Below are positions 4,881 to 64,000 of a DNA stretch of 64,000 nt, one piece after another. The first letter of the stretch is position 1. Each line of letters opens with the position of its first letter. The notes under the pieces are model-generated. The model was not told where the DNA came from and ran no database searches. It was given only the letters and a program-made list of their open reading frames with translations. The position numbers and the translations under genes are program-made. The stretch covers positions 1 through 64,000 of the forward strand of contig JAQGHU010000085.1 of the NCBI GenBank assembly GCA_028291515.1, read 5' to 3'. The stretch comes from Schlesneria sp. (GTDB lineage Bacteria > Planctomycetota > Planctomycetia > Planctomycetales > Planctomycetaceae).

Positions 4881-7067
4881 ATGCTCTCGATTCGTCTGCC
4901 GGACGGTTCTGTTGTCGAGCACCCCGATCACGCGACTGCGTTCGATGTCGCGCAAGCCATCAGCCCACGCCTGGCCGCGGCGGCGGTGGGGGCGATCGTG
5001 GACGGAACCACCGTCGATGTCATGCGACCGCTGGCGGAAGTCACCACCGAACGACCGATCCCCGTGCAACTGCTGACCGAGAAAGATGCTGCGTCGCTCG
5101 CCATTTTGCGGCACTCGTGCGCTCACATTATGGCTCGCGCCGTGATGCGGTTGTGGCCCGGTGTCGAACTGGCGTTCGGCCCGACCAAGGGCCACGGTTA
5201 CTACTACGATATCGCCTGCAGTCACAAGATCAGCGAAGACGACTTCCCGCGGATCGAAGCCGAGATGCAGAAGATCGTCGATGCCGGCGAACCGTTCGAA
5301 CGATTCATCTGTGATCGAGATGAAGCGGTGAAACTGGTCGATGGCATGTCGCAGAAGCTGAAGGTTGAGCACATCAACATCGGCTTGGCAACTCATCCGA
5401 CTGTCAGCTTCTATCGTCAGGGCGAGTTCGTCGACCTCTGTCGTGGTCCACACGTGCCCGACGCGAAGCGAGTGAAAGCGTTCAAGCTGCTCTCGATTGC
5501 CGGAGCCTTCTGGAAGGGTGACGCCAGCGGCCAGCAATTGCAGCGACTGTACGGCACCGCCTGGTTCTCACAGAAGGATCTCGACAACTACCTCGATCAG
5601 GTCAATGAAGCCAAACGCCGCGATCACCGCGTCCTGGGTAAGCAACTGGGGCTGTTCACCATCAGCCAGGAAGTTGGCCAAGGTCTGTGCCTGTGGCTGC
5701 CCAAGGGAGCGACCATCCGCTCCATCCTGGAAGACTTCATCAAGAAAGAACTGATCGCTCGCGGCTATCAACCGGTTTACTCACCGCACATCGGTCGAGT
5801 GGAACTGTACGAAACCAGCGGTCACTTCCCGTACTATCGAGATTCACAGTTCGCGCCGCTGTTCGGGCATGAGGGTGGGCAACTGGTCGACTTCTGGATC
5901 CGCAAGCTGCAAGCGAACGAGTTGACTGCCGAAGAAGAAGTTCATCTGTTGGCGAGTGCTCAACTGACCGGTGCGGATCTGTCCGACTTCCCGCACAAGG
6001 GAACGAACGAAGAAAAAGGTGCGTACCTGCGGACTTGGGAAAAGGCTCAGGAGCGATATCTTCTGAAGCCGATGAACTGCCCGCATCACATCCAGATCTA
6101 TAAGGCTCAACCACGCAGCTATCGCGATCTGCCCGTGCGACTGGCCGAGTTCGGGACCGTCTATCGCCACGAGCAATCAGGCGAACTGAACGGCATGCTG
6201 CGCGTGCGCGGGTTGACTCAGGACGACGCTCACTTGTTCTGTACTCCCGAGCAGGTCGTGCAGGAGTTCAAGGATACCCTTGATCTGGTCAAGTTCGTGC
6301 TGAGCAGCGTCGGCCTGAACGATTACCGCGTTCAATTGTCCTGCCGCGACTCGAAGAACAAAGACAAGTATGTCGGTGCGGACGAAGACTGGGAGAATGC
6401 CCAGAACGCTCTGCGGCAGGTGCTGCAAGAAAAGCAGATGCCGTTCATCGAATGCGAAGGGGAAGCCGCGTTCTACGGTCCCAAGACCGACTTCATGGTT
6501 CGCGACTGCATCGGCCGTGAGTGGCAACTGGGAACTGTGCAACTGGACTTCAACCTGCCGAAGCGATTCCAGTTGGAATACGTCGGTGCCGACAATCAGA
6601 CTCATCAGCCCGTGATGATTCACCGAGCCCCCTTCGGTTCGATGGAACGGTTCACCGGAATGTTGATCGAACACTTCGCCGGAGCTTTTCCATTGTGGCT
6701 GGCTCCGGAACAAGTCCGCGTGATGTCGATCAGCGACAAGTTCGAGGACTACGCGAAGCAAGTCGAAGCCAAGTTCCGCGCAGCAGGATTCCGAGTCGGC
6801 ACTGATTTGCGTGGCACCAAGATCAACGCCAAGGTGCGTGACGCTCAGTTGGAACTGATCCCCTACATGCTGGTCGTCGGCGGCAAAGATCAAGAAAACG
6901 GCACGGTGAGTGTGCGAGACCGCATCGACGGCGACTTAGGTGCGATGCCGATCGCCGATGCGATGGCCAAACTGCAGGAAGAAGTCAGCGAACGCCGCAT
7001 CCGCCAGGTCAGTGAAAAGAAGTTCCAGTCGTTCGAAGAAGAAGGCAGCGAAGCGAACGAGTATTAA
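4881..7067 (+). CDS. thrS: threonyl-tRNA synthetase
   Basis: Charges tRNA-Thr with threonine in the cytoplasm. Domain order: TGS domain (about 1-61); editing domain with zinc motifs HSCAH (78-82) and CRGPH (187-191); class II catalytic core with the zinc-ligand motifs MNCPH (about 398), YRHEQSGE and IHRAPFGS; and the anticodon-binding domain (from about 620). At 728 residues it is longer than the usual roughly 640. Much of the excess is an insertion of about 60 residues (about 328-392, [15 protein letters not shown] to RTWEKAQER) between the [10 protein letters not shown] segment and the NCPH zinc motif, a place where most bacterial enzymes have a short loop. Start chosen at the ATG followed by the typical TGS opening. 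The downstream gene is 256 bases away, so this is probably a single-gene unit. Confidence 0.97.
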
Positions 7068-7322: not shown

Positions 7323-9500
7323 ATGATGGTGGGGCAACGCAAGAACCTGTGGCTGCTTGCTGGTTTGCTGGGGTTTTACCTCATCATGGCGGCGGTTTTG
7401 CCTGCCGCGGATGATGAGGTTTACTACTGGGCATGGGCTCGGCCTCTGCAGTTCAGCTATTACGACCACCCGCCTCTCACGGCCTACATGATTCGGCTGT
7501 CGACGGACATCTTCGGCGACAGCATCTTTGGATTTAGAGTCCCCGCCTGCCTGGCGACTGCGTTTGTGCTGTTGGTGATTGCTCATCTATCCAAGCCAAA
7601 GTCGCTGCTGCCGGGGATCGTGTTGACGCCCCTGTTTACGCTGGGGGCGGTGCTGATCACGCCGGATACTCCCCTGCTCTGCTTCTGGGCCGCGTATGTC
7701 TGGTGGCTGGTGGAGGTGCATCGCCGGTTGACTCCTGTTGTGGAAGAAGGTCAGGCCGAACCGGGACCGGCTTCGCTTCCGTGGTGGATGTGGCTGGTGG
7801 GTGGCGTCCTGCTCGGATGTGGGGTGCTCGGCAAGTACACAATGGCGCTCGCGGTCCCCTCGGGCTTCGTCAGCTTCTGCCTGGTGTGGCGACTGTGGAA
7901 ACGCTGGCTGCCGGGGTACATCGCGCATGGCGTGGTGGCATTTATCGTCGCCTCGCCGATTTTGATCTTTAACATCCAGCAGAACTTTGCTCCGCTGCTG
8001 TTTCAATGGCGGCACACCATGACCCACTCTCAACCCGGCATCAAACCGTTTGGCGAGTTCGTGGGCGTACAGCTCTTGCTGTTCGGGACGCTGCCATTCT
8101 TCCTGTATCCGTGGGTGCTGTGGAGCTTCCGCTCGCTGTGCACGAATCCCCGTTTGCGAGTCTGTGCCTGCCTGTACGCGTTCCCGATGACGTTCTTCCT
8201 GTATAAGGCGACTCAAGCGCCGTTGCAGGGGAACTGGGCGCTGGTCATGTTCGTCTCATTCTGGCCTTTAGCGGCGGCGTGGTATCAAACAGTCAGTGAA
8301 TCACGCTTCTGGCGCTGGTCGACCGCTTCGGCGTTTATCATCCCCGCCGTCTGTGTGGCGTTCCTGACCGTGCACCTGCTCTACCCGATTCCGTTCATCC
8401 CGGCCGAAGGGGATCGGGTCACTCGGCAATACGCGTTGAACGAAGCGACGCATCAGATCGCGGAAACGATTCACCAGCGCGGCGAGGCTCTGCCAGTCTT
8501 CACGACGACCTATCAGATCACGGCCTGGCTGCGATTTCAGTCGCTCGACGGCCGCCAGATCGATCAGATCTCGCGACCCAGCCACTTCACCCAGCACCCC
8601 GAACATCTGGCCGACGTGACTCGCGCCTATGTCGTTGCCGACTTCCCGCTGCCTCCAGAATTCGCCCCGGGTTTTGGGGAACCTGAACTTGTCGGAAATT
8701 TTCCAGTGAAGGTCCGCGGAGAAGCCGTTCGCGACTTCAAGCTGTACCTGTATTCCAAATCGATCGCCGCGAAGAGGCCGTCGTCGGGCGTGGCGATGGT
8801 CAATCATGAAGAACTCATCGCCGGTCCGACCCCACTGACTGAAATGCAGACTTCTGAAACACCAGCAGAGGACGAATTGAAACCGGCGACCGCAGCATCT
8901 GAGATGTCGCTGCGGTTGCAGATATTGAAGATGTCGCAATCGGCTTTCGATGAACTTGGGAGCCCGGAAAATAGAGCCATCCACATTTCCGCCAGGATGT
9001 ACGACGAGAAATTGAAGGAACTGATCGAGGCTGGCAAAGCGCAGGTGGTGGCCGAACCGGCGATGTTGCTGAAGCCCAATCAGCCCGCGCGATTCCTGAG
9101 CGGCGGCGAGTTTCCCGTTCCCATTCCGGTTGACGGCGCAGAACTCGATGTGGAATGGCGGCAATTTGGTACCGAAGCCGCAGTGACCGCGACTCCTGAA
9201 GCCGAAGGGCGAATCAAGTTGAAGCTGTTCTTCGCTGTGAGTGAGCTGGACATGGAAAACGCCGTTGAGTTCAACGGGATTAATATTCCGGGGGTTACCA
9301 GGCGTCAGCTTCAATCGACGGTCACCGTCGCGCTGAACGACCCGCGAATGTGGAGTTTGGAATCCGGCGAGGACCAATGGACCTTGTTTCGATACGAACT
9401 GGTGGCGAATGGCAGTCCTGCTCTACTGAAAGAGGCGGATGCCAATGCGAATGGAGTTACTCGCGAAGAGGCTCCGCCGGTGCGCTCGGCACCTGAATAG
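7323..9500 (+). CDS. GT39/ArnT-like membrane glycosyltransferase fused to a secretin-like domain
   Basis: A 725-residue membrane protein. Residues 1-360 carry about ten hydrophobic segments and the GT39 (PMT_2) first-loop signature: acidic DDE at 30-32 and FSYYDHPP (44-51). This family transfers a sugar from a polyprenyl-phosphate carrier to an acceptor outside the membrane. Residues 360-485 form the usual soluble tail. An acidic linker (about 490-528) leads to an unexpected segment, 529-695, that reads like a secretin beta-domain: VVAEPAMLLKPNQPARFLSG, GGEFPVPIP, EWRQFGTEAAV, AVSELD and NGINIPGVTRRQLQSTVTV. These match the order seen in PilQ/CpaC/GspD proteins; the rest of a secretin is absent. 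The ATG at 7323 is chosen because the hydrophobic protein begins there; the longer frame upstream is not protein-like. GGAG lies about 10 bases upstream. Confidence 0.85.
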   Translation: MMVGQRKNLWLLAGLLGFYLIMAAVLPAADDEVYYWAWARPLQFSYYDHPPLTAYMIRLSTDIFGDSIFGFRVPACLATAFVLLVIAHLSKPKSLLPGIVLTPLFTLGAVLITPDTPLLCFWAAYVWWLVEVHRRLTPVVEEGQAEPGPASLPWWMWLVGGVLLGCGVLGKYTMALAVPSGFVSFCLVWRLWKRWLPGYIAHGVVAFIVASPILIFNIQQNFAPLLFQWRHTMTHSQPGIKPFGEFVGVQLLLFGTLPFFLYPWVLWSFRSLCTNPRLRVCACLYAFPMTFFLYKATQAPLQGNWALVMFVSFWPLAAAWYQTVSESRFWRWSTASAFIIPAVCVAFLTVHLLYPIPFIPAEGDRVTRQYALNEATHQIAETIHQRGEALPVFTTTYQITAWLRFQSLDGRQIDQISRPSHFTQHPEHLADVTRAYVVADFPLPPEFAPGFGEPELVGNFPVKVRGEAVRDFKLYLYSKSIAAKRPSSGVAMVNHEELIAGPTPLTEMQTSETPAEDELKPATAASEMSLRLQILKMSQSAFDELGSPENRAIHISARMYDEKLKELIEAGKAQVVAEPAMLLKPNQPARFLSGGEFPVPIPVDGAELDVEWRQFGTEAAVTATPEAEGRIKLKLFFAVSELDMENAVEFNGINIPGVTRRQLQSTVTVALNDPRMWSLESGEDQWTLFRYELVANGSPALLKEADANANGVTREEAPPVRSAPE

Positions 9501-9609: not shown

Positions 9610-10098
<489 letters not shown>

Positions 10099-10859: not shown

Positions 10860-11257
10860 GATGATCCTCTTGGTTTGAAGTCTGGTCCTCTTGCGATGAC
10901 CAGCAGTCTACTCGACGACAAGTTTGGACGGAATGCCCGGTTGGAAGGGAATAGCGGGTGGGGAATAAGGAATAGCTGAAGAATGCGATCTTCCTGCGTC
11001 CTATGCCCTGTCTCGCGGTTTCGGAAATCCGTCTGAGGATCTGCCGCTACGTGACTTCATGCGGATGTCACACCTTAATTTGTAAGTGGCGACTGTCAAT
11101 ACTGTTGCAATCGCTACTTCGGGAAGACTCCTCTTGGACGGCAAAGTTTCCGGCATAACTTGGTTGACGATCCGGTCAGCCAATTGCTATCAATTAACAA
11201 TTGCCGATGCGAGATTGGTGGTTCTCCGGAACCGTCCTCCCCCGCAGGATCCCGCCG
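10860..11257. other. divergent intergenic region
   Basis: About 400 bases between the minus-strand thioredoxin gene and the plus-strand DUF1549 gene. It must hold both promoters, but I see no distinctive promoter or operator. No gene is supported. Confidence 0.5.
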
Positions 11258-14110
11258 ATGACATCCCGCCTGAAAAACTCCTTCCTGTTCTTGGCCTTGG
11301 TTAGCCTGCTCGCTGCTGGTGCGCCCGCGTCGGCCCAGGAGACACTGCATCAGCGAATCGATCAATTGATCGAATCCAACCTGATCGGTCCGGCGGCCGC
11401 CATTGCCAACGATGCCGAATTTGCGCGACGAGCCTTTCTCGATTTGACAGGGGCAATCCCCTCGTCGGCAGAAGCTCGGGCGTTTCTCGATGACGCCGCG
11501 CCGAACAAGCGTGAACTGTTGATCGATCGGCTGCTGGCCAGCCCGCGCTATGCGGTTCATCTGGCGACTGTGTTAGATGTCATGTTCATGGAACGCCGTC
11601 CCGACAAGCATGTTCCCGCACCCGAATGGCTGAAGTACCTGCAGGGATCGGTCGAGCAGAACAAGCCGTACGATCAGTTGGCTCGTGAGATCCTCGGTGC
11701 CGACGGGACCGATCCGGCGGTGCGACCAGCGGCGAAGTTCTTTCTGGATCGCGATGCCGAGCCTCATTCATCGGCACGTGATGTGGGACGGATCTTCTTC
11801 GGAATGGATCTGCAGTGTGCTCAGTGTCACGATCATCCGCTAGTCGATCATTATCTGCAATCGGACTATTACGGGCTGTACGCGTTCGTGAATCGGACAA
11901 ACGTCTTCACCGATGCCGCTCAGAAGAAGTCGTTCCTCGCCGAGAAGTCGGATGGTGATGCGAGCTACAAGTCGGTCTTCACCGGTGATGCAGCGGACAC
12001 GCGGCCTCAGTTGCCGGGTGAAGATGAAATCGAAGAGCCTCGGCATCGCCAGGGTGAAGACTATGTCACAGCTCCCGCTGCGACGGTAAGAGCCGTTCCG
12101 AAGTACAGCCGACGAGCGAAGCTGGCCGAGTTGGCGACGAATGGAACAAATCGGCAATTCAATGTGAACATTGCGAATCGATTGTGGGCGCAGGTGATGG
12201 GACGCGGCTTGGTCCATCCTGTTGACTTGCATCATCCCCTCAACACGCCGTCGCACCCTGCGGTGCTTGATCTGATCACGAATGAGTTCGTGGCCCAGAA
12301 GTACAATGTGAAGTGGCTGCTGCGGGAACTCGTGCTGACGCGAGCTTATCAACGGTCGATTGATCCCGCGGTCGAGATGAGCGGTCAGTTAGCTGCCGCG
12401 TCGCAACAAGTTCCTGCGGTCGACGCGGAATACAATCGCTTGAAGGGGGTGGCCGAAGCCTCTCGCCAGACAGCGAACACCATACGAGATGAAATGAAGA
12501 CGGCTCGCGCGGCATTGGAGCCGACCGAAGCAGCTTGGAAAAAGGTTGAAGTCGCGGTGACGGAAGCGAAGAAGCCTGTTGATGTGGCCGTCACGGCGGT
12601 TGCGAAGGCTCAGGGAGAAGCGGTCGCCAAGCAGGCCGTTCTGAATGTGGTCACGGAAGCCTCGACGAAAGTGGCCGAGGCCGCGAAGCTGTTGCCGAAT
12701 GATAAAGATGTTGTGGCCTCTGCTGCCACATTCACCGCCAAGCAACAGCAAGTAACCGGGGAACTGGCCGCGATTCAGAAGGTTGTGACCGATCAGACGG
12801 CGGCTCAAGCTACCGCACAGGCGAAGCTGGTCGAAGCGTATGCTCCTGCTGATGCGGCGTATGCAGCGATGGTGGAAGCTCGCAAGCCGGTCGATGCCGC
12901 CAAAGCAAAGGTGCTGGTCGTCTGGAACCAGCATAAAGCTGACTCGTTGGCTGCGGCGGTTCAGAAGAAGCGATTGGATGGCCTGCAGGGACATGTGGCC
13001 TTTGCAACAGTTGTCGCGAGTGTCGGTCCTGCTCAAGCCGCGATTGAACCTGCGAAGGCGGAACTCACCGCCGCCATTCAGTCCGTGGAGCAACAGCAGG
13101 CCGAATTGACTAAGCAGACGGCGGCTGTCGCAGAAATCGAGAAAACGATGACTGAGGCGACGAAGTCATTGGACGACGCCAAGTCGCAATTTGCGGCGAA
13201 GCAGGTGATCGCGCAATCGGTGAGCGAAGCACTGGCGAAGTCGGAAGCCGCACTGCAAAAATTACCCGGCGATGCCGAATTGACGGTGATCGTTCAAAAA
13301 CTGAAAGAGCGACAAGATCCGCTGGTGAAAGAGGCGACGACGTTTGAACAGGCGGTTACTGTCCGCGACGCGGCTGCGAAAGAAGTCGCGACGCAGATGG
13401 CCGCGATGAAGCAAACCCTGACGACGACGACCGCTGAAATGGCGGCTCGGCAAATGGTCGTGACCGCGAAGACCAATACCGTGAACCTGGCGACGGCGGC
13501 TGCTCAGGCGGCGCAGGGTGCCATTGAAACAGGAAAAGCGTCATTGGTCGACTCGTGGACTTCGGGATCGGGTGTGCGACCGCTGAAGCATCTGACTCCC
13601 GAACAACTCGGTTGGGCCGTGATGCAGGCGACGGGCGTCATCGAACCACAGCGTGCTGGCGTTGATGCCGAAATCGAAAAGACGAATCCGAAAGCGAATG
13701 TGGCGAACGATGCCGCGAAAACACGTAGTCGAGATTTCGAAGTCGAGGCGCTGTTGCACGAGAAGAATCGCGGCAACCTGAATGTGTTTGTTTCGATGTA
13801 CGGCCAGTCGGCAGGGCAACCGCAAGACGATTTCTTCGCGACGCCGGATCAGGCATTGTTTGTGGCTAATGGCGGCTCGGTCATCGGCTGGGCTTCAGGC
13901 GGCCAATTGGCTCAGCGACTGAATCCGATGGAAGATCCGAAGGGACTGACGGAAGAACTCTATCTCAGCCTGCTGACTCGTCGGCCGACTGAAGCAGAGA
14001 TTAACGACACCACTCGCCTGCTGGCAGCACGTCCGACAGAAAAAGGAATCGTCGTTCGCGATATGATCTGGGCGCTCGTGACGTCAGCGGAATTTCGGTT
14101 TAACCATTGA
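11258..14110 (+). CDS. DUF1549/DUF1553 secreted protein with long coiled-coil insertion
   Basis: A 950-residue protein of the planctomycete PSCyt2/PSD1 type. The start is the ATG at 11258, with AGGA upstream and a signal peptide directly after it (LKNSFLFLALVSLLAAGAPA). The DUF1549 part (about 30-250) includes RRAFLDLTGAIPS and a CAQCH motif (187-191) of the kind that can bind heme c. DUF1553 begins at about 290 (NRQFNVNIANRLWAQVMGRG) and is interrupted at about 380-760 by an Ala/Lys/Glu/Gln-rich stretch predicted to be coiled coil. It resumes at GVRPLKHLTPEQLGWAVMQA and ends with the hallmark LYLSLLTRRPTEAE and FRFNH. In this phylum the family is usually paired with DUF1501, as here (93 bases downstream). 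Function is unproven. Confidence 0.92.
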   Translation: MTSRLKNSFLFLALVSLLAAGAPASAQETLHQRIDQLIESNLIGPAAAIANDAEFARRAFLDLTGAIPSSAEARAFLDDAAPNKRELLIDRLLASPRYAVHLATVLDVMFMERRPDKHVPAPEWLKYLQGSVEQNKPYDQLAREILGADGTDPAVRPAAKFFLDRDAEPHSSARDVGRIFFGMDLQCAQCHDHPLVDHYLQSDYYGLYAFVNRTNVFTDAAQKKSFLAEKSDGDASYKSVFTGDAADTRPQLPGEDEIEEPRHRQGEDYVTAPAATVRAVPKYSRRAKLAELATNGTNRQFNVNIANRLWAQVMGRGLVHPVDLHHPLNTPSHPAVLDLITNEFVAQKYNVKWLLRELVLTRAYQRSIDPAVEMSGQLAAASQQVPAVDAEYNRLKGVAEASRQTANTIRDEMKTARAALEPTEAAWKKVEVAVTEAKKPVDVAVTAVAKAQGEAVAKQAVLNVVTEASTKVAEAAKLLPNDKDVVASAATFTAKQQQVTGELAAIQKVVTDQTAAQATAQAKLVEAYAPADAAYAAMVEARKPVDAAKAKVLVVWNQHKADSLAAAVQKKRLDGLQGHVAFATVVASVGPAQAAIEPAKAELTAAIQSVEQQQAELTKQTAAVAEIEKTMTEATKSLDDAKSQFAAKQVIAQSVSEALAKSEAALQKLPGDAELTVIVQKLKERQDPLVKEATTFEQAVTVRDAAAKEVATQMAAMKQTLTTTTAEMAARQMVVTAKTNTVNLATAAAQAAQGAIETGKASLVDSWTSGSGVRPLKHLTPEQLGWAVMQATGVIEPQRAGVDAEIEKTNPKANVANDAAKTRSRDFEVEALLHEKNRGNLNVFVSMYGQSAGQPQDDFFATPDQALFVANGGSVIGWASGGQLAQRLNPMEDPKGLTEELYLSLLTRRPTEAEINDTTRLLAARPTEKGIVVRDMIWALVTSAEFRFNH

Positions 14111-15528: not shown

Positions 15529-15883
15529 GCAAGCGTCGTGCGATATTGTTGGCGCATCGACTTCGCCCAATCGCTTGGCGAGATTGGTTACGTTGGAACG
15601 AGGTATCGCAGTTCGATGACTTGGCGATTTCTAGCCATTTGGATCACCGCTCCATTCTCTATTTTCTCGTTTTGGCGATCTGGCGAGATTCGTCGGCCAT
15701 TTTTCGTTGAAGGCTGATCGAGAAGCCGGATTCTTTCTTCGCGTTATTTCAGATTCTGGCGGTCCCATTTGCCCGGCGGTGATAGCCAAATCTGGCTGGT
15801 TTTGTGTATCTTTCAGCCGCGGGTTTCGTGAAGCGCTCGTCCGGCTGTTGCAGCCGATTCCCTCCAGCGAAGGTTCTTACGTG

Positions 15884-17086
15884 ATGAAGTGTTTTCGATT
15901 AACGTTGGCTGTACTACTGACTCTTTCTTTGGGATTTACACCGCTGATGTCGCATGCCGCTGATAAAGCTGAACCGGGCGTTCAGGACAAGGACGCTCCG
16001 AAGGAATTCACGACCACGAAGAGCGGTCTGAAATACCGAATTCTGCGCAAGTCCAACAAAGAGAAGCCCAAAGAATCCAGCACGGTCAAGGTCCACTACA
16101 AGGGGACACTCGACAACGGTAAGGTCTTCGATAGCTCGTACGAGCGTGGCGAAGCGATCGAGTTTCCGCTGAACGGTGTGATCGCCGGTTGGACGGAAGG
16201 GATGCAACTGGTTGGCGAAGGGGGCATGATCGAACTGGAGATCCCCTATCAACTGGGCTATGGCGAACGGGGGACTCAGGGAATTCCCGGCAAGTCGACG
16301 CTGCACTTCATCGTCGAATTGCTCGAAGTTCAGAAGCCGCTGGAACCGGGACCAAATGACGCCGATGCCCCGAAGGAATTCAGTGAGACCAAGAGCGGCC
16401 TGAAATATCGTGTGTTGCGCAAGGGCAAAGGCCCCAAGCCAGGACCGACCACGACCGTGGAAGTACATTACAAGGGCTGGCTGGATAGCGGCGAAACCTT
16501 TGACAGTTCCTACGATCGTCGCGAGCCGATCAAGTTCCCGCTGAACCGCGTCGTCAAAGGCTGGACGGAAGGGATGCAGTTGGTTGGTGAAGGTGGCAAG
16601 ATCGAGCTGGAGATTCCTTACGAATTGGGATACGGCGAAGCGGGCCGACCTCCGAAGATTCCTCAAAAGGCGACGCTGCACTTTATCGTCGAGTTGCTCG
16701 AAGTTCAGGTTCCTGCGGAACCTGGTGCTGTCGATAAGGATGCGCCTGAGAAGTTCACCACAACCAAGAGCGGCTTGAAGTATCGCATTCGTCGCAAGAC
16801 GGAAGGTGCCAAACCGGTCGGGGACAACGTCGTCAAAGTCCATTACAAGGGTTGGCTGGATGGCGGCAAGGTCTTCGATAGCTCGTACGATCGCGGCGAG
16901 CCGATCGAGTTTCCACTCGGGGGCGTGATCAAGGGCTGGACGGAAGGGATGCAGTTGGTTGGCAAGGGTGGGATGATCGAACTGGAGATTCCCTACGATC
17001 TGGCCTACGGCGAAGAAGGCCGTCCCCCCGTGATCCCTGCCAAGGCGACGCTGCACTTCATCGTTGAGTTGCTCGACGTAAAGTAG
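15884..17086 (+). CDS. three-domain FKBP-type peptidyl-prolyl isomerase
   Basis: A 400-residue exported foldase. A signal peptide (MKCFRLTLAVLLTLSLGF to SHA) is followed by three tandem FKBP domains at about 38-150, 161-275 and 283-400. Each has VHYKGxLDxGxxFDSSY, GWTEGMQLVGxGGxIELEIP, an LGYGE/LAYGE block and ATLHFIVELL. The domains are highly alike, indicating internal triplication, and each opens with DAPxxFxxTKSGLKYRxxRK. Start: ATG at 15884 (GTG at 15881 is possible) with GAAGG upstream. An intrinsic terminator follows closely, so the gene is probably monocistronic. It likely helps protein folding in the periplasmic space. Confidence 0.94.
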   Translation: MKCFRLTLAVLLTLSLGFTPLMSHAADKAEPGVQDKDAPKEFTTTKSGLKYRILRKSNKEKPKESSTVKVHYKGTLDNGKVFDSSYERGEAIEFPLNGVIAGWTEGMQLVGEGGMIELEIPYQLGYGERGTQGIPGKSTLHFIVELLEVQKPLEPGPNDADAPKEFSETKSGLKYRVLRKGKGPKPGPTTTVEVHYKGWLDSGETFDSSYDRREPIKFPLNRVVKGWTEGMQLVGEGGKIELEIPYELGYGEAGRPPKIPQKATLHFIVELLEVQVPAEPGAVDKDAPEKFTTTKSGLKYRIRRKTEGAKPVGDNVVKVHYKGWLDGGKVFDSSYDRGEPIEFPLGGVIKGWTEGMQLVGKGGMIELEIPYDLAYGEEGRPPVIPAKATLHFIVELLDVK

Positions 17087-20971: not shown

Positions 20972-21179
20972 GGTGACGCTCTTGATGGGAGATTTTGAAA
21001 TGGAGAGCGTACAGCTTAGCGACTCCACTGCTGGGTAGCACAACGCAAACTGGTGTCGGTGGATCAATTTTGTCTGACTGAAAGCGTTAATTGGCGAGAC
21101 TTGCGTCAAGCGAACCGTGCAGGCAGACTTGAGGGCTGACAATGGACGATTCAATCAATCAATCAGGTTGCGCTCATTC

Positions 21180-22169
21180 ATGCATATTCGAGACGGAATT
21201 CTGGCACCCGAAGTCTGCCTGGCGGCGGGGGCAATCAGCCTGGGGGCGATTACGTATTCGCTGCGGCGGTTGCGGTTTGATCTGGAAGATCGCGCGGTCC
21301 CGTTGACGGGGATGATGGCGGCGATCGTGTTCGCTGGCCAAATGGTTAATTTCCCGTTATTCGGTCTGCCGGTCTCGGGACATCTCCTCGGCGGGGTGTT
21401 GGCGGCAGTCATGCTGGGGCCGTGGGCTGGCTGCCTGGCGATTTCGATGGTGCTGATCGTGCAAGCGGTCCTCTTCAGCGACGGCGGGTTGATGTCGCTG
21501 GGAGCGAACATCTTGAACATGGCGGTAGTCGGGGCGTGGGGTGGCTATGCCGTCTACGCCACGATTCGGCGGATACTCGGCAACGGCGCTGCGGCGACGG
21601 TGTCGGCGGCGGTGATTGCCGCGTGGCTGTCGGTGTTGGGAGCGGCGGCTCTGTTCTGTGCAGAGTTTCTCTGTTCGTCTCGATCGGCGGGTGTCGATCC
21701 GCGCGGGGTGCTGTCGTTGATGGTGCTATATCACTCGTTGATCGGGGTCGGAGAGGCTTTGATCACAGGGGCGGTGTTGTCATTCGTGTTGGCTCGTCGA
21801 GGTGACCTTGTTCCGACTCCGAATGCACCGGGATCGGTCGGTACGATTGGACGCTTTGCCGCGACCGGCCTGATGGCGGCTTTGGCTGTCGCGGCGATTG
21901 TGGCTCCGTTCAAGTCGGAATCGCCCGATGGACTGGATGCTGCGGCGCAGGATCTGAAGTTCGACAAACTGGAGGTTGAGCGACCCGCGTTGGTGCTGGA
22001 TGACTACGCGATTCCTGTTGCCGAATCCGCCTGGTGGCCGGCGCTTCCCGTTTCATTGGCCGGGATTGTGGGGACGCTGGTCGTGTTCATCGCGGCGGTC
22101 GTGTTGGCGGGAATCACGCGACGGAACGTGGTGCCGATTCGAGTTGCGGATGGTTCCCATGGGAACTAG
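21180..22169 (+). CDS. cbiM: ECF cobalt/nickel transporter substrate-binding membrane protein CbiM with PDGLE tail
   Basis: A 329-residue membrane protein that selects Co2+ or Ni2+ for an energy-coupling-factor importer. The N-terminus MHIRDGILAPEVCL fits the family rule that Met1-His2 helps bind metal, which fixes the start. It has about seven membrane segments, the GHLLGGVLAAVMLGPWAG motif and LMSLGANILNMAVVG. After the transporter core, a SPDGLD motif (about 243-248) and a last membrane helix near 300-320 match the PDGLE/CbiN-like tail, so a separate cbiN may not be needed. No cobalamin or NiCo riboswitch was seen upstream. Cobalt and nickel cannot be separated from sequence alone. It overlaps cbiQ by 11 bases. 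Confidence 0.93.
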   Translation: MHIRDGILAPEVCLAAGAISLGAITYSLRRLRFDLEDRAVPLTGMMAAIVFAGQMVNFPLFGLPVSGHLLGGVLAAVMLGPWAGCLAISMVLIVQAVLFSDGGLMSLGANILNMAVVGAWGGYAVYATIRRILGNGAAATVSAAVIAAWLSVLGAAALFCAEFLCSSRSAGVDPRGVLSLMVLYHSLIGVGEALITGAVLSFVLARRGDLVPTPNAPGSVGTIGRFAATGLMAALAVAAIVAPFKSESPDGLDAAAQDLKFDKLEVERPALVLDDYAIPVAESAWWPALPVSLAGIVGTLVVFIAAVVLAGITRRNVVPIRVADGSHGN

Positions 22170-22818
22170 TGGGATCGGTTCCGACACGGGTTCGCACTCC
22201 ATTTGCCACGCCCTTCCTGCGGGAATGAAACTGCTGCTGACACTGGGGATCATCCTGGTGGCTGGCCTGATTCCGCTCGAACATTGGCCGGCTCAGGGGT
22301 TGTTGCTCGCGCTGGTTTTTGTGGGGCTGAGTCTGGCTGGCGTGACGATGCGCTATCTTGTCCGACGGTTGGCGTTGTTCCTGCCGCTGCTGCTGGTGTT
22401 TGGGCTGTCGGTGCCGATGGCGCGTTCGAACGATGCAGCCTGGAGTTGGACGCTGTCGCTCTGGCTACGGTGTACGGTGTCGTTTATGGCGGGGTTGTGG
22501 CTGGTGCACGTGCTGCCGTTTCGTGATTTATTGACGACGTTGCGGTACTGGCACTTCCCGCCCGCGTTGATTGCGATGCTTGGCTTCATGTATCGCTATA
22601 CATTCATTCTGTGGGATGAACTGCGACGACTTCGCAATGCTCGGGCCGCCCGGGATTTTGGTGGTGGGCCGTGGTGGCGCGTCTGGTCGATCAATTCCCA
22701 GGTCATCGGTCTGCTGTTGCTGCGCGCGATGGAGCGGGCCGAGCGGACTCATCGGGCGATGCTGGCTCGGGGGTGGGATGGGTCGATTCGGTTTCTGGAT
22801 GGCAAGGATGCTGGCTGA
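22159..22818 (+). CDS. cbiQ: ECF transporter transmembrane protein CbiQ (EcfT)
   Basis: A 219-residue membrane component that couples ATP hydrolysis to metal transport. The ATG at 22159 lies inside the end of cbiM, suggesting translational coupling. About five hydrophobic segments are present. The EcfT coupling motifs appear as RRLRNARAARDFG and ERAERTHRAMLARGWDG (the A-R-G motifs that dock on the ATPase). It sits between cbiM and cbiO as in known cobalt transporters. Confidence 0.92.
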   Translation: MGTSGIGSDTGSHSICHALPAGMKLLLTLGIILVAGLIPLEHWPAQGLLLALVFVGLSLAGVTMRYLVRRLALFLPLLLVFGLSVPMARSNDAAWSWTLSLWLRCTVSFMAGLWLVHVLPFRDLLTTLRYWHFPPALIAMLGFMYRYTFILWDELRRLRNARAARDFGGGPWWRVWSINSQVIGLLLLRAMERAERTHRAMLARGWDGSIRFLDGKDAG

Positions 22819-22912
22819 GGGCCGAGCGACAGAATGGAAAGCGGATCAGGCCAAAGACGCGCGGGGCGTTGCCCACGCGGTTAAACGAATGCATTGAGAG
22901 ATTTGACTTCGA

Positions 22913-23671
22913 ATGGCTAACTCCGATCAGCCCGCGATGGAACTTCGCCGACTGTCGTTTCGCTATCCCAATGGCCGACTGGCGTTGGAAGAGATCACAT
23001 GCGCCGTGCCTCACGGTGAGCGCGTGGCGATCGTGGGGCCCAGTGGTGCGGGCAAGTCGACATTGCTGATGCACTTGAATGGTCTGCTCCCCTCCCCTTC
23101 CCTGTCGAAAGACGATGACGCACAAGTCGCGATTGAGGGGCAAGCAGTGACTCGGTCGCGACTGCAGCAGATTCGTCGGCAAGTTGGCTTTCTGTTTCAA
23201 GACCCCGACGATCAACTGTTCTGTCCGACTGTTCAAGACGACGTCGCGTTTGGGCCGTTGAACCTGGGCCTGGATCGCGCGGAAGTGCTGGCTCGTGTGG
23301 AACAGGGGCTGGCTGCTGTGGGCATGGCAGACTGCCTGACTCGCAATCCGTCCGAGTTGAGTACGGGCGAACGCAAACGAGTCTGTCTGGCGGGGATCCT
23401 GGCCTGCGGTCCTTCGATCCTGGTCCTGGACGAGCCGACCAGCAATCTGGACCCGCGTGCCCGGAGACAGTTGTTACACATCCTGCGCGAATTCGCGGGG
23501 ACGCTGATTGTGGCGACGCATGACCTGGATTTTGTGATCGATCTTTGCAGCCGAGTCCTCGTGCTGGAATCGGGCAAGGTCCAGGCTGATGGTCCGACGG
23601 AACGAGTGCTTTCGGATCCCCTGATCATGGATCGCCACGGGTTGGAAGTGCCGTGGCGATTGCGCAGGTAG
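22913..23671 (+). CDS. cbiO: ECF transporter ATP-binding protein CbiO
   Basis: A 252-residue ABC ATPase that powers CbiMQ. It has Walker A GPSGAGKST, Q-loop FLFQDPDDQLF (typical of ECF ATPases, with the DPDDQ stretch), Walker B ILVLDEPT and the switch histidine in VATHDLD. The signature reads LSTGERKR where most relatives have LSGGQKKR, a noticeable change at the ATP-contacting loop. It lies 94 bases after cbiQ and is the last gene of the unit; inverted repeats follow. Confidence 0.93.
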   Translation: MANSDQPAMELRRLSFRYPNGRLALEEITCAVPHGERVAIVGPSGAGKSTLLMHLNGLLPSPSLSKDDDAQVAIEGQAVTRSRLQQIRRQVGFLFQDPDDQLFCPTVQDDVAFGPLNLGLDRAEVLARVEQGLAAVGMADCLTRNPSELSTGERKRVCLAGILACGPSILVLDEPTSNLDPRARRQLLHILREFAGTLIVATHDLDFVIDLCSRVLVLESGKVQADGPTERVLSDPLIMDRHGLEVPWRLRR

Positions 23672-28887: not shown

Positions 28888-29805
28888 ATGGCGGCGAGAC
28901 GGCGGCAAGTTGGGTTCACGTTGATTGAGCTGTTGGTGGTCATCGCGATAATCGCGGTACTGATCGCCTTGTTGTTGCCGGCGGTTCAGCAGGCGCGGGA
29001 GTCGGCTCGGCGGACTCAATGCAAAAACAACTTGAAGCAGATCGGGTTGGCGCTGCACAACTACCACGATACGTTCAGCACTCTTCCTCCCGGAGCGATC
29101 CAGGACTTCACTGGAAACGCGCAGAACGAAGCGTCCTGGATTTCGATGATTCTGCCCGGTATCGATCAAACTCCGCTCTACAACCGGGCCAACTTCAGTT
29201 CCTGTTTTGGTTGTACCGCTGCTCCCGGCAATCCCTCCTATGAGATCACCAGCCCCACGATTCCGATGATGTTGTGTCCCTCTGATGTCGATGCGGGGTT
29301 GGTCTACAACGCCTATCGCCGCGGTAATTACGCTGCGAACACCGGGATCGGTCCCCTGCACAGTGTGAATGATCCCAACGATCCGACGCGGACCGCGATT
29401 GGGCCATTCACGATGAATAGCAAGAAAAGTCTGCGAGACTTTCTGGATGGGACGACCAATACCATCGTCGTTGCTGAACTGTTGAAGTCGCCAGGTGCGG
29501 ATTTTCGTGGGGTAATGCACTATCCGGAGGGGCCGCTCTATCAGCATGATCAAACCCCAAACAGCAGTGTGCCCGATCAGTTCCGCAGCGGATTGTGTGT
29601 TTCAATACCTCGAGCACCCTGCGTCGGTGTCTATAACGCCTACAACGATCGAGCGATCGTTCTGGCCGCGAGAAGCCTGCATGTGGGTGGCGTACACGTG
29701 CTGATGGGGGATGGTTCCGGCCGATTCGTCAGCGACAATGTCCATCGCCCGACATGGCAGGCACTATCCACGCCCGGCGGCGGCGAGACAATCGGCGAGT
29801 TCTAA
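28888..29805 (+). CDS. DUF1559 pilin-like (pseudopilin) protein
   Basis: A 305-residue protein of the large planctomycete DUF1559 family. The N-terminus has a prepilin-type leader and methylation motif, [20 protein letters not shown], with cleavage expected before Phe and the usual Glu five residues on. It is followed by [20 protein letters not shown] and NLKQIGLALHNYHDT. The C-terminus has the family block HVLMGDGSGRFVSDNVHRPT and ends near GGGETIGEF. It probably assembles in a pilus- or secretion-like fibre at the cell envelope. A ribosome site (AAGGGACGG) precedes the ATG. The lipoprotein gene follows after a family C repeat. Confidence 0.95.
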   Translation: MAARRRQVGFTLIELLVVIAIIAVLIALLLPAVQQARESARRTQCKNNLKQIGLALHNYHDTFSTLPPGAIQDFTGNAQNEASWISMILPGIDQTPLYNRANFSSCFGCTAAPGNPSYEITSPTIPMMLCPSDVDAGLVYNAYRRGNYAANTGIGPLHSVNDPNDPTRTAIGPFTMNSKKSLRDFLDGTTNTIVVAELLKSPGADFRGVMHYPEGPLYQHDQTPNSSVPDQFRSGLCVSIPRAPCVGVYNAYNDRAIVLAARSLHVGGVHVLMGDGSGRFVSDNVHRPTWQALSTPGGGETIGEF

Positions 29806-48806: not shown

Positions 48807-49733
48807 TTAGAAGTCGCCGACGACGTTCCCTTCTTGCATTCCGGACAGGCTACGCCATGTGTTAACGTCGATGTTGTTGGATACGAAGCGGATTGCTCCG
48901 TCGCACATCGCCACGTGAACGCCGCCCGTATGCATGCTGCGGGAGGAGAAAATCAACGGATTCGTTGTGTCACCTAAGCCGCCGGGTCCGTATGCTTGAC
49001 ATGGAAAACTCGTAGTCGATTGGCAGAATCCTCCGTTGAGTGCATCTGGCGACGTGGTGTTCGGTGTATAGAAGGCTGAAACGCCAGATCCTGGTCCCCA
49101 CCAAGTCAGGCCGCGAAGATCTTGATTGGTACGGCCTTGGCGCACTTCCATCATCAGCAATGTGTTCGAAGTCCCGTCGCTGATGTCTGCGAGACGATAG
49201 GCAACGCCAGCAGCACCTGCATTGTTTTCGTTGTGAAATGGCGAGCGGTTAAACGTAACAGAGTTAAAAGGGCTGACACGCACCGATGAAGTGTTGCCTA
49301 GATTCACCGCGTAATTATACTGGCAAATTGCATTGTACCAAGACGTGGGCGAGTCACTCGGGCAGGTCATCGCGGCCATTCGAATCCCACAGAGCTTTTG
49401 GTTGTTCCCGCCATCGTTGTAGTTCTGTGCTTCAATCCACTGGGCAAATACCGCCGCTTGATCGATATAGGGCAGGATTCCCTTAATCCATCCGTCGCCG
49501 GTCACGTCGCCGCAGTAACCAATCGGCAATCGATTGGTCGTATCGTGGTAGTTGTGCATGGCGAGGGCGAGTTGCTTGAAGTTGTTCTTACAACTGGTGC
49601 GTCGCGCTGATTCCCGTGCTTGTTGAACCGCGGGAAGCAAGAGGGCGATCAAAACGGCAATGATCGCGATCACGACCAGCAGTTCGATCAACGTAAACCC
49701 TGCTCTAAATCGACGAGTGTTTCGACTTGGCAT
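48807..49733 (-). CDS. DUF1559 pilin-like protein, second copy
   Basis: A 308-residue member of the same family as the gene at 28888. The ATG at 49733 has GGAG six bases upstream, better than upstream ATGs. The N-terminus [20 protein letters not shown] carries the prepilin motif with a basic leader; then [20 protein letters not shown] and [20 protein letters not shown] follow. The end has [20 protein letters not shown] and [10 protein letters not shown]. It follows its lipoprotein partner by 87 bases on the minus strand, reversing the gene order of the first module. Confidence 0.95.
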
Positions 49734-49820
49734 CTGAGACTCCATGAGAACAGAACAGAACAGGAAAATAACGCATCCCAACCCGACTGAAAGCATTCCG
49801 CGTGATCGCGGTCGATATTC

Positions 49821-61494: not shown

Positions 61495-63783
61495 CTACTT
61501 TGCCGGAGCCACCGCACCAGGTGGCATCTGTCCTGGCAACGCTTGGCCCGGGGCATGAGCACCCGGAGTCGTTGTCATTGGTGCCGGAACGCCAGGAGCC
61601 CTTGGAGCGACAGCACCAGGATTCATTGGCGCGGGGCCACCAGGCAAACCGGGTTGACCCGTCGGTGCCGTCGCGACAGGCTCAGGTGGTCGTTGCTTAC
61701 GGTTGGCTAGCAATGTCGGTTGCCAGGCGAATTGCACGATACAGGTCGTCTGCGGAATTCTAATGGACGTGCTCGGGCCCTTGTCTTCTTCGCCGAAGCC
61801 AGGTCGTACTCCTCCAATGCCGCCGGGCCCTCCTGAACCACCTGGGCCTCCCGGACCTGGGCCGAAGACAGGGGCCGGACCGCCGCCACCTGGCCCGAAG
61901 CCTTGTGCTCCACCTGGTCGGTTCACCCTGTCTGTCGGACGCCCGTTCGGCCAGAAATGGATGAATTCGAGCGGAGTTGAATCTGATATTGTCGCGTGGC
62001 TGATACCGATAGATCGAACAGGTGTCTCGATGATTGTGCCATTGGCGTCGATTCGTTTGACGCTCCAATCCTGCAGATTCTTCAGCATGGTCGTTCGGAC
62101 GTAATTTAAGCCACGCTCTTCAGACGTGTTCTGTTCACTGTCGTGGTAATGAACGCAGTTCAAAGTGAAAACGTATCCTGGTCCCTTCGGCGGAGTCTTC
62201 AGATCATCAGGAGTCATGTAACTCTTGATTGCCTCAGCGCTGCCAGCTTTGAATTCATTGATCCACGCACCAAGATCATCGTACTTCTTGCAGGTCATGC
62301 CCCGAATCGTGATCCGGGCCATCTTCGAGATTTCAGTCTCATCGAGTTTGTTGCCTTCGTCCCGTGGCAGCGATTCGTCGATGGCCTTGTAGACTTCCAG
62401 CCAGTTCTCGCGGGTATCCAGCATCCCCACGAGTTTCTTGCCCGCTGTTCGCAAGGTGTCGTTCTTCTTTTCCTCGGCGTCGTACTTGCTCTTTAAGCCC
62501 GTCGCTTCCCCAGCGATTCCGTCGGCCGCTTTTTCCTGCTCCCCGAAGCGATCCTCGCTGACCGACATGTACGCCGCGCCATATCCAGCGGCGGACATCG
62601 ACAAACCCACCAGCAGCGTTGCCGCAGTTGCCACGGCCCACGGTTTCTTGCGGCGCACTTTACGAGCGATCGTGATTTCCGGTGGCAACAACGACGTATG
62701 AATATCGGTCAGCTTCAACGTCTGCAGAGCCAGTCCATATGGGACGCAGAACGTCAGCAGGTTGTCCTGGAACAATGGTGCATTCAGCACGTGGTCCCCG
62801 GCCAACCCCTTGAACGTGTCGACGCGTTCCACATCGTATTGCAGATTCTGCTGCAAGAACTTCTGAAGTCCCGCCAGTCGGAAGCCATTGCCGACGCCGA
62901 TCAAACGGCCAATCTTCGCACTGCGATTCACGCTCGAGAAGAACCCGATTGATCGCTGGATTTCGGCCACGTAATCGTTGAAGACGGGCCGCAAGGCCTG
63001 GAAGACCGCTCGCGGATCGGGCGACTTGGTCGCGTTGCACTTCAGGTGTTCAGCCTTCGCGAACGTCAGCTTCATTTCCTTGGTCAAGGCGCGGGTGAAG
63101 TGATTCCCGCCGACCGGCATATTTCGAATCCAGATCTTCTTGCCGTTGGTCACCATCAACGTCGTGTTATCGCAACCCATGTCAACGACGACTGAGTACT
63201 CGTCCGCTTCTTCGCGTGGCGCTCCCAGTCGCATCCCCAGCCAGTCGTAGCACAGGAAGTTGTACAGGGCCAGCGGCGCGATCTGAACAATTTCGACTTC
63301 CATCTTCTTCGCGAGATACGGATTCAGGTGATGTTGCACCTGTTCGCGCTTCATCGCGAACAAGCCGACTTCACCGTCGAGCACGAATCCGCTTTCTTCG
63401 ACACCGCCACCCAGCGTCTGATAGTCCCAGATCACTTCTTCGAGCGGGAATGGGATCTGTTGCCGGGCTTCGTACTTGACGATCTCTTTGACGCGGCTGG
63501 CTTCCACAGGAGGCAATTGAATGAACTTCGCCAAGGCTGTCTGCCCCGGCAAACTGATCGAGATCAAATCTCCGGCGATCTGATTGCGCGAGAGGAAGGT
63601 ATCGAGTGCCTGACGAATCAACTCATCGGGAACAGCATCCGGCTGACTAAGCAACTTGGGGTGCGGGACGTAATCGAAGGCGACTGCCACAACTTGCTGG
63701 GCCGCTTCCGCGTACCGCAACTTAATCGCCTTCAGTCCGGCCTGGCCAATCTCGATGCCCCATGCCGATTGTGCGTCTGCCAT
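61495..63783 (-). CDS. PilM-PilN fusion (GspL-like), type IV pilus/secretion platform protein
   Basis: A 762-residue inner-membrane protein. Residues 1-355 are a PilM actin-like ATPase domain: WGIEIGQAGLKAIKLRY, KYEARQQIPFPLEEVIWDYQ, VVVDMGCDNTTLMV, the RNMPVGGNHFTRALTKEM loop and GRLIGVGNGFRLAGLQKFL. At about 362-372 is IHTSLLPPEITIA, which resembles the INLLP-type segment by which PilN normally docks onto PilM. A membrane helix follows (about 382-406), then a coiled coil and a PilN-like ferredoxin-type domain (about 420-600), so the two subunits are joined in one chain, like GspL. The final 120 residues are a Gly/Pro-rich tail. The start at 63783 (MADAQSAWGIEIG) is preferred over GTG at 63792. 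No pilus ATPase or secretin gene is in the window. Confidence 0.9.
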   Translation of the reverse strand: MADAQSAWGIEIGQAGLKAIKLRYAEAAQQVVAVAFDYVPHPKLLSQPDAVPDELIRQALDTFLSRNQIAGDLISISLPGQTALAKFIQLPPVEASRVKEIVKYEARQQIPFPLEEVIWDYQTLGGGVEESGFVLDGEVGLFAMKREQVQHHLNPYLAKKMEVEIVQIAPLALYNFLCYDWLGMRLGAPREEADEYSVVVDMGCDNTTLMVTNGKKIWIRNMPVGGNHFTRALTKEMKLTFAKAEHLKCNATKSPDPRAVFQALRPVFNDYVAEIQRSIGFFSSVNRSAKIGRLIGVGNGFRLAGLQKFLQQNLQYDVERVDTFKGLAGDHVLNAPLFQDNLLTFCVPYGLALQTLKLTDIHTSLLPPEITIARKVRRKKPWAVATAATLLVGLSMSAAGYGAAYMSVSEDRFGEQEKAADGIAGEATGLKSKYDAEEKKNDTLRTAGKKLVGMLDTRENWLEVYKAIDESLPRDEGNKLDETEISKMARITIRGMTCKKYDDLGAWINEFKAGSAEAIKSYMTPDDLKTPPKGPGYVFTLNCVHYHDSEQNTSEERGLNYVRTTMLKNLQDWSVKRIDANGTIIETPVRSIGISHATISDSTPLEFIHFWPNGRPTDRVNRPGGAQGFGPGGGGPAPVFGPGPGGPGGSGGPGGIGGVRPGFGEEDKGPSTSIRIPQTTCIVQFAWQPTLLANRKQRPPEPVATAPTGQPGLPGGPAPMNPGAVAPRAPGVPAPMTTTPGAHAPGQALPGQMPPGAVAPAK

Positions 63784-64000
63784 AACGATCACCCCCGAAA
63801 TCCAGAACGACCTGAGCCTCTTCCATCAAAAGAAAGGAACCAGATTGTCTATCATCCCGAAATCAAAAGTTGAAAATCTGCGAAGTGCCCTGCAGCGAAC
63901 TTGAACCGCCCGCTCGCGACATGAATCTGACCAATTCCGATGTGCTGAATCTGGTGAATGGTGAATTCCGATCACGAATCGCGGACCAATCGTTCAACCA
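63784..64000. other. window edge; possible gene start or end
   Basis: 217 bases upstream of the platform cluster. An ATG at 63921 opens 26 codons to the window end on the plus strand (MNLTNSDVLNLVNGEFRSRI..), and a minus-strand frame is open from the edge to a stop at 63863. Neither has enough sequence to be called. The cluster promoter must lie here or beyond. Confidence 0.3.

What the first reader, a model, noticed from the sequence alone, without database searches (positions are those of the whole stretch)
8907..9408. Secretin-like beta-domain fused to a GT39 membrane glycosyltransferase
Residues 529-695 of the ArnT-like protein read as the core of a secretin: AEPAMLLKPNQPARFLSGGE, FPVPIP, a WRQFGTEA strand, AVSELD, and NGINIPGVTRRQLQSTV. 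This follows the order found in PilQ/CpaC/GspD secretins, but GT39 enzymes are not known to carry one. The reading frame is continuous with no sign of a junction error. It could link sugar transfer to an outer-membrane secretion or pilus complex, or be a secretin-derived recognition module. Together with the pilin-like proteins and the PilM-PilN cluster in this window it hints at glycosylation of a pilus system. I know of no described example.
Basis: partly seen in the sequence, partly recalled or inferred. Interest (0 to 1): 0.78.

Follow-up and report, generated by a model that had tools for sequence, protein, structure and literature searches.

The report
Sugar transferase carrying a secretin domain
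A membrane sugar-transferring enzyme of a planctomycete bacterium carries, on a flexible tether, a shortened copy of the domain that normally builds outer-membrane secretion pores, which suggests that this domain can be moved between proteins as a non-pore attachment module.

Summary
Window ORF 7323-9500 is one 725-residue protein: a GT-C (PMT_2/GT39-type) membrane enzyme, a soluble domain, a disordered linker of about 45 residues, and a secretin beta-domain (residues 527-697). Pfam Secretin E = 1.9e-11; the AlphaFold model's best structural matches are secretins (Z up to 12.7). An independent genome of the same genus (Schlesneria), G011, has the same fusion (GT 78%, domain 36% identical), so it is not an assembly error. 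The nearest relative, G012 (GT 96%), lacks the domain, most simply by loss. The domain is not a whole secretin: it has no N-domains and lacks the conserved lip segment. Its closest kin are secreted, free-standing secretin beta-domain proteins found patchily in the family. In Schlesneria such a gene stands before a DUF1573 gene in 7 of 15 genomes; in both fusion-bearing genomes the gene at that place stops before this domain. Best reading: the domain moved from a secreted carrier to a membrane enzyme and serves as a periplasmic docking module. Gene context does not support pilus glycosylation. The binding partner is unknown.

The parts
7323..9500 (+). fused GT39-secretin protein, 725 aa plus stop (frame open from TTG 7221)
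7323..8384 (+). GT-C membrane core, residues 1-354 (PMT_2)
   Evidence: Pfam PF13231 4.7e-15; helices 4-353 in the full-length model; Foldseek matches AglB, AftB, OST, Pmt1-Pmt2
7410..7418 (+). first-loop acidic motif D30-D31-E32, presumed catalytic; D31 and E32 invariant in 14 orthologues
   Evidence: catalytic role recalled from PMT/ArnT, not tested
8415..8762 (+). soluble alpha/beta domain of the GT, residues 365-480
   Evidence: full-length model
8766..8900 (+). disordered linker, residues 482-526
   Evidence: segment with pLDDT under 50 in the full-length model
8901..9413 (+). secretin beta-domain, residues 527-697, without the lip segment
9099..9128 (+). SGGEFPVPIP motif
   Evidence: aligned with RcpA and with secretin-domain relatives
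9273..9293 (+). NGINIPG motif
4881..7067 (+). thrS, upstream neighbour; thrS-GT39 order shared with G011 and G012
9610..10098 (+). smpB, downstream neighbour (also in G012, not in G011)

Best explanation
Shown: the gene encodes a GT-C membrane enzyme with its acidic motif intact, followed by a soluble domain, a disordered linker and a folded, shortened secretin beta-domain of the kind found in free-standing secreted planctomycete proteins; the frame is kept open in two lineages beyond neutral expectation, and a third, near relative lacks the domain. Supported but not proven: the domain came from the Schlesneria gene of that kind that stands before DUF1573, whose copy in the fusion-bearing genomes now stops before the domain. 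Inferred: the enzyme's C-terminus lies in the periplasm, so the enzyme took over from the signal peptide the job of placing the domain there. Without lip and N-domains the domain should not make an outer-membrane pore by itself; it works as a docking module that pairs with other beta-domains or a periplasmic scaffold and holds the sugar transferase near its acceptor. The partner is not known: the genome's Tad-type secretin is one candidate, the truncated helix protein of the DUF1573 locus another.
For: Domain identity and fold. Independent fused orthologue in G011. Linker and separate domain. Missing lip segment: present in 47 of 50 classic rows, 3 of 28 free-standing rows, 0 of 2 fused rows by a pattern of mine that misses some variants (alignment). 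Kinship with free-standing proteins: fused pair plus the G007 protein, SH-aLRT 91 (80 rows) and 96 (70 rows); fused pair plus all seven Schlesneria free-standing proteins, 94 (76 rows); fused pair plus classic secretins rejected at p-AU 0.0125. Relocation: full-length free-standing gene in 7 of 15 Schlesneria genomes (G001, G002, G005, G006, G007, G008, G014), truncated gene of about 120-130 aa at the same place in 5 (G000, G010, G011, G012, G013). Selection.
Against: All branches concerned are long and support is moderate; with six further Schlesneria rows the rejection of a classic origin weakens to p-AU 0.063. Classic secretins as one clade apart from the rest are rejected too (p-AU 0.031), and some free-standing proteins (L091, L134) fall among the classic ones, so the free-standing state is not one clean group. 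In six of the seven full Schlesneria genes the domain is too diverged to match PF00263 at E <= 0.001 (also for G005); their identity rests on 36-44% matches to the G007 protein and on position. Three genomes (G010, G012, G013) have the truncated gene and no fusion was seen in them, so truncation and fusion need not be one event; in G013 no GT was found at all. The domain diverges fast (36% against 78% for the GT) and G012 lives without it. No binding partner was shown. Four of the seven genomes with a full free-standing gene have no PF13629 match, against a general need for a Tad secretin. Periplasmic placement rests on the GT-C fold and a crude loop-charge count.
Confidence: 0.5

Rival explanations
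1. The domain helps assemble or decorate the Tad pilus secretin of the same cell, and the enzyme glycosylates pilus parts.
For: G000 and G011 both encode PF13629-bearing secretins; the domain's best PDB sequence match is the Tad secretin RcpA; the fused pair and G007, whose domains keep the hallmark motifs, all come from genomes with PF13629, while four of the six genomes with degenerate free-standing domains have none.
Against: The gene is not near any pilus gene; free-standing relatives occur in genomes without PF13629; the motif/PF13629 association rests on nine genomes, four of them near relatives.
Confidence: 0.17
2. The domain is an oligomerisation module: it forms rings or edge-strand pairs with itself and gathers several transferases into one cluster.
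For: It keeps most strands of the secretin beta-domain and its most conserved motifs.
Against: No multimer was modelled; 10 of the 12 Schlesneria GT orthologues with a visible C-terminus lack it.
Confidence: 0.18
3. The domain is a passenger left by a recombination accident, with little function and on its way out.
For: Fast divergence (36%) and absence in G012; found in only two genomes.
Against: Open frame and secretin motifs kept in both lineages although synonymous sites are saturated; module dN 0.60 against GT dS 1.65.
Confidence: 0.13
4. The fusion is an assembly or frame artefact.
For: The window comes from a genome in 119 contigs.
Against: The same architecture in an independent genome with the thrS-GT39 order.
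Confidence: 0.01

Closest known systems
RcpA/CpaC secretin of the Tad pilus (PDB 8odn)
   Same: beta-domain fold (Z 11.6, 27% identity over 130 aligned residues) and the GGEFP.P and (V/I)PG-type motifs
   Different: RcpA has an N-domain, an inner lip with AHL and an S-domain and forms C13/C14 channels (PMC10499894, passages read); here there is no N-domain, no lip segment, and a membrane enzyme in front
Free-standing secretin beta-domain proteins of Planctomycetaceae (grouped here; known to Pfam only as PF00263)
   Same: beta-domain without N-domains, mostly without the lip segment; nearest in trees
   Different: they have an apparent signal peptide and a helical region instead of the GT-C enzyme
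GT39 / PMT_2 / ArnT-like GT-C transferases
   Same: PMT_2 match, first-loop DE motif, C-terminal soluble domain
   Different: no secretin domain in the other 10 Schlesneria orthologues whose C-terminus was seen; only a weak match to the ArnT model (0.0022)

Membership tests
Secretin (PF00263) | profile match above the curated cut-off | tested here: met
   44.3 bits against 27.5; positions 3-112 of 169
Secretin (PF00263) | secretin beta-domain fold | tested here: met
   top 28 VIA rows are secretins or complexes holding one, Z 9.4-12.7
Secretin (PF00263) | conserved lip / amphipathic segment of the P.LG.IP.LG..F type | tested here: not met
   absent from both fused proteins; its equation with the AHL is recalled
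Secretin (PF00263) | periplasmic N-domains (N0/N1/N3, or PF13629/BON in the Tad type) | tested here: not met
   only PMT_2 and Secretin match at E <= 1; the three classic Tad-type proteins scanned all show PF13629
Secretin (PF00263) | forms an outer-membrane multimer pore | not testable with these tools
   no multimer prediction or experiment
GT39 / PMT_2 | PMT_2 profile match | tested here: met
   56.6 bits against 26.1
GT39 / PMT_2 | GT-C fold | tested here: met
   AglB E 5.2e-4, AftB E 9.9e-4, Pmt1-Pmt2 E 5.2e-3
GT39 / PMT_2 | sugar-transfer activity | not testable with these tools
   only the invariant D31-E32 pair was seen
ArnT (NF009784) | equivalog cut-off 567 bits | tested here: not met
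   16.7 bits
Free-standing planctomycete secretin-domain proteins | beta-domain groups with these rather than with classic secretins | tested here: inconclusive
   support 91, 96 and 94 in three quick trees; the classic alternative has p-AU 0.0125 but 0.063 with more rows; long branches throughout

The most novel reading that the evidence does not exclude
In Planctomycetaceae the secretin beta-domain has left the secretion pore and become a mobile, non-channel periplasmic adaptor. One copy was cut from a secreted helix-plus-beta-domain protein and relocated to the end of a membrane glycosyltransferase, leaving the helix half behind at the old locus, so that a pore-building fold now aims an enzyme at its acceptor.
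Probability: 0.35. Interest if true: 0.72.

Novelty: new variant of a known kind. Interest (0 to 1): 0.55.

Why it matters
Secretins are known as giant outer-membrane pores. A set of secreted proteins with only the beta-domain, mostly without the membrane-contact segment, and a transferase that has taken over such a domain, would show that the pore fold can be used without a pore. It gives a small version of the domain on which oligomerisation can be tested apart from membrane insertion. It also gives a natural with/without pair (G000 and G012, GT 96% identical) for asking what the domain does for the enzyme.

Tried and rejected
Rejected: assembly artefact (independent fused genome); chance resemblance; a separate secretin gene behind the GT (in G012 smpB follows the GT directly; none behind the GT of G009). 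The module used as a query found nothing at E <= 0.001 in six Schlesneria genomes with a plain GT (G001, G002, G003, G005, G006, G014), but this is weak evidence, since it also missed the diverged free-standing gene that five of these six hold. A pilus gene cluster around the GT was looked for and not seen.

Led nowhere: a sequence profile of the GT family against the PDB gave no match at E <= 0.01. A tblastn search of plasmids gave 180 records, all under 60% identity and none covering 80% of the query; of the 20 rows listed, five bear a pilus-assembly name, one a type II/III secretion name, the others 'hypothetical', 'membrane protein' or none. Paper searches for secretin with Planctomycetes or Planctomycetota, Tad pili, domain architecture, 'orphan secretin', and secretin domain with glycosyltransferase fusion listed nothing that I recognised as this architecture (titles and abstract starts only); this covers open-licence PubMed Central papers only. 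The phylum-wide searches scored few candidates per genome (two, up to seven), so their misses are weak evidence.

Dropped rows: ten rows with very long branches were left out of the 70-row tree and the 76-row tree; rows under 60 bits were left out of the 80-row tree from which both derive. Three proteins of 471-665 aa were labelled free-standing by hand (L018, L112, L138) because of their layout. All three trees used the short search with SH-aLRT only. Signal peptides were judged by eye. The lip pattern is my own and misses variants (for instance in L020).

Full report
What is there. Pfam finds PMT_2 at E 4.7e-15 and Secretin at E 1.9e-11, the latter only over profile positions 3-112 of 169. 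The PDB sequence search gives RcpA of the Tad pilus (8odn, 5.8e-13) and a type II/III secretin (8jvb, 9.3e-5). The full-length AlphaFold model (14-row alignment, mean pLDDT 74.5, pTM 0.63) shows membrane helices to residue 353, a soluble domain 365-480, a linker 482-526 under pLDDT 50, and a beta-domain of strands and short helices at 528-695. A second model of residues 510-725 with 70 rows reaches pLDDT 83.8 and pTM 0.71. Its 39 PDB matches at E <= 0.001 are, by title, secretins or secretion complexes that contain one, and so are the 28 best VIA-align rows, Z 9.4 to 12.7, against 6.7 for the next row. The Foldseek TM-scores of those 39 are low (0.33-0.47 of the query); the VIA alignments give 3.0-4.4 A over 128-155 residues in 23 of the 28 rows and 6.8-7.7 A in the other five (several of these are open-state or needle-complex T3SS structures).

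Is it real. G011, a different Schlesneria genome (its contig has the length of JAFEBS010000066.1), encodes the same architecture in about 690-707 residues depending on the start. Its GT part is 78% identical and its domain 36%. Both lie behind thrS. Because G011 branches outside the G000-G012 pair in the DUF1573 tree and carries the domain, loss in G012 is the simplest reading.

How widespread. Within the order, 14 of 170 genomes have a GT orthologue at E <= 1e-30, and the match runs into the domain only in G000 and G011. In the genus 13 of 15 genomes have a GT; in G007 it runs off a contig end, so 2 of 12 visible C-termini carry the domain. In a sample of 392 phylum genomes, which did not return G011, only the window's own matched over both parts. 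In the scan of 84,980 named genomes, 10 loci matched and only L064 (the G011 contig) matched past residue 515; that scan used two GT peptides, so it reaches only near relatives.

What the domain is. Searching with its end of the protein gave matches in 84 of 99 genomes. Many are in long ORFs of the ordinary secretin kind, but several are in short ORFs. These encode proteins mostly of about 250-430 residues with an apparent signal peptide, a helical stretch (in many HLR.AAE.LE..G) and a secretin beta-domain. Thirteen of them were scanned with Pfam: twelve show Secretin (one of these below the curated cut-off), one shows nothing, and none shows PF13629, BON or another N-domain; the three classic proteins scanned beside them all show PF13629. 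NCBIfam gave no match over its cut-off for the six free-standing proteins scanned. They form a graded series: some keep the whole domain (L020, L107), others lose the P.LG.IP.LG..F segment between the last two strands (L062, L026 and the fused pair). By pattern the segment is in 47 of 50 classic, 3 of 28 free-standing and 0 of 2 fused rows. The amphipathic helical loop has been seen in all structurally characterised secretins and is thought to start membrane contact (PMC6532946, passages read); that this loop is the missing segment is my recollection.

Where it came from. In the 80-row tree the fused pair groups with the free-standing protein of Schlesneria G007 (SH-aLRT 91); without ten long rows support is 96, and a clade of the fused pair with classic secretins is rejected at p-AU 0.0125. 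Adding six more Schlesneria proteins puts all nine together at 94, but the classic alternative is then only at p-AU 0.063. Classic secretins as a clade of their own are also rejected (p-AU 0.031), and two free-standing proteins of another family (L091, L134) sit among them, so the free-standing layout probably arose more than once. Long branches are in play throughout. The Schlesneria free-standing gene stands directly before a DUF1573 gene. Of 15 genomes, 7 have the full gene (G014's is split over two contigs). In six of these seven the domain is too diverged to match PF00263 at E <= 0.001; only the G007 copy keeps the hallmark motifs. Five genomes (G000, G010, G011, G012, G013) have at the same place a gene that shares the QRVSP.LL motif and the helix but stops before the domain (the G013 motif reads QRVSPKVL). 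G003 has DUF1573 but no such gene was found; in G009 the stretch upstream of DUF1573 was cut short and shows none; in G004 the locus was not found. The DUF1573 tree of 14 genomes splits the genus into two groups with full support, the five truncated copies in one and the seven full copies in the other. The fused domain begins about where the truncated gene stops. I read this as relocation, but G010, G012 and G013 have the truncated gene and no fusion was seen in them, so the order of events is open.

Is it kept. Between G000 and G011 the GT has dN 0.15 and dS 1.65; the domain has dN 0.60 with dS saturated. Under neutral drift the simulated chance that 200 codons stay open is 0.001 or less per lineage at 0.5-0.75 substitutions per site, and 0.14 at 0.1. 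So the domain is kept, under looser constraint than the enzyme.

How it most likely works. GT-C enzymes have their active site and C-terminal soluble domain outside the inner membrane (recalled); loop charges agree (a crude hydropathy analysis that finds only 7 helices, so it cannot fix the orientation). The domain then hangs in the periplasm on a flexible tether, the compartment that the free-standing relatives would reach by a signal peptide. Lacking lip and N-domains it should not make a pore by itself. Its core strands and most conserved motifs are kept, which suggests that it still pairs with beta-domains or a scaffold. I commit to a docking module. A Tad secretin as the general partner is unlikely, since four of seven genomes with a full free-standing gene (G001, G002, G005, G006) have no PF13629 match, although all 15 genomes have other PF00263 proteins. 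The three proteins that keep the hallmark motifs best (G000, G011, G007) do come from genomes with PF13629; with so few, related genomes this is only a lead.

The pilus reading. The window holds a PilM_2 gene at 61495-63792 and two DUF1559 proteins with pilin-type N-termini at 28888-29805 and 48807-49796, but none is near the GT, and the GT's neighbours are thrS and smpB. The contig shows no other PF00263 place at E <= 0.01.

Noticed in passing
L062 1216-2121, L020 901-2016, L016 1327-2412, L023 946-2004, L026 1441-2349, L011 1018-1956 and others: A patchy set of apparently secreted free-standing secretin beta-domain proteins in Planctomycetaceae (28 rows in the tree), without detected N-domains and mostly without the lip segment.
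   Followed up: partly
L172 994-1428, L170 1001-1423, L168 210-665, L173 1041-1457: Small apparently secreted helix-only proteins before a DUF1573 gene, probably the remains of the free-standing secretin-domain gene.
   Followed up: yes
L112 382-2376: A 665-residue protein with a long proline-rich N-terminal part and the helix-plus-secretin-domain unit at its C-terminus: a further carrier of the same unit.
   Followed up: partly
L010 250-2166: A 638-residue protein of the window's own genome with a partial secretin match at 418-517 and two weak stretches by my own profile.
   Followed up: no
L109 231-1163 and 1345-2544 (G522:C631): Two different free-standing secretin-domain genes side by side in one genome.
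   Followed up: no
window 11201-14110: A DUF1549/DUF1553 protein with a long alanine-rich, possibly coiled-coil insert; the DUF1553 model matches in two stretches.
   Followed up: no
window 15707-17086: Three FKBP-like repeats in one apparently exported protein, seen by eye in the translation.
   Followed up: no
window 21117-23671 and L174 6823-9240: The cbiM-cbiQ-cbiO cluster lies about 12 kb from the GT in the window but directly beside it in G011.
   Followed up: no
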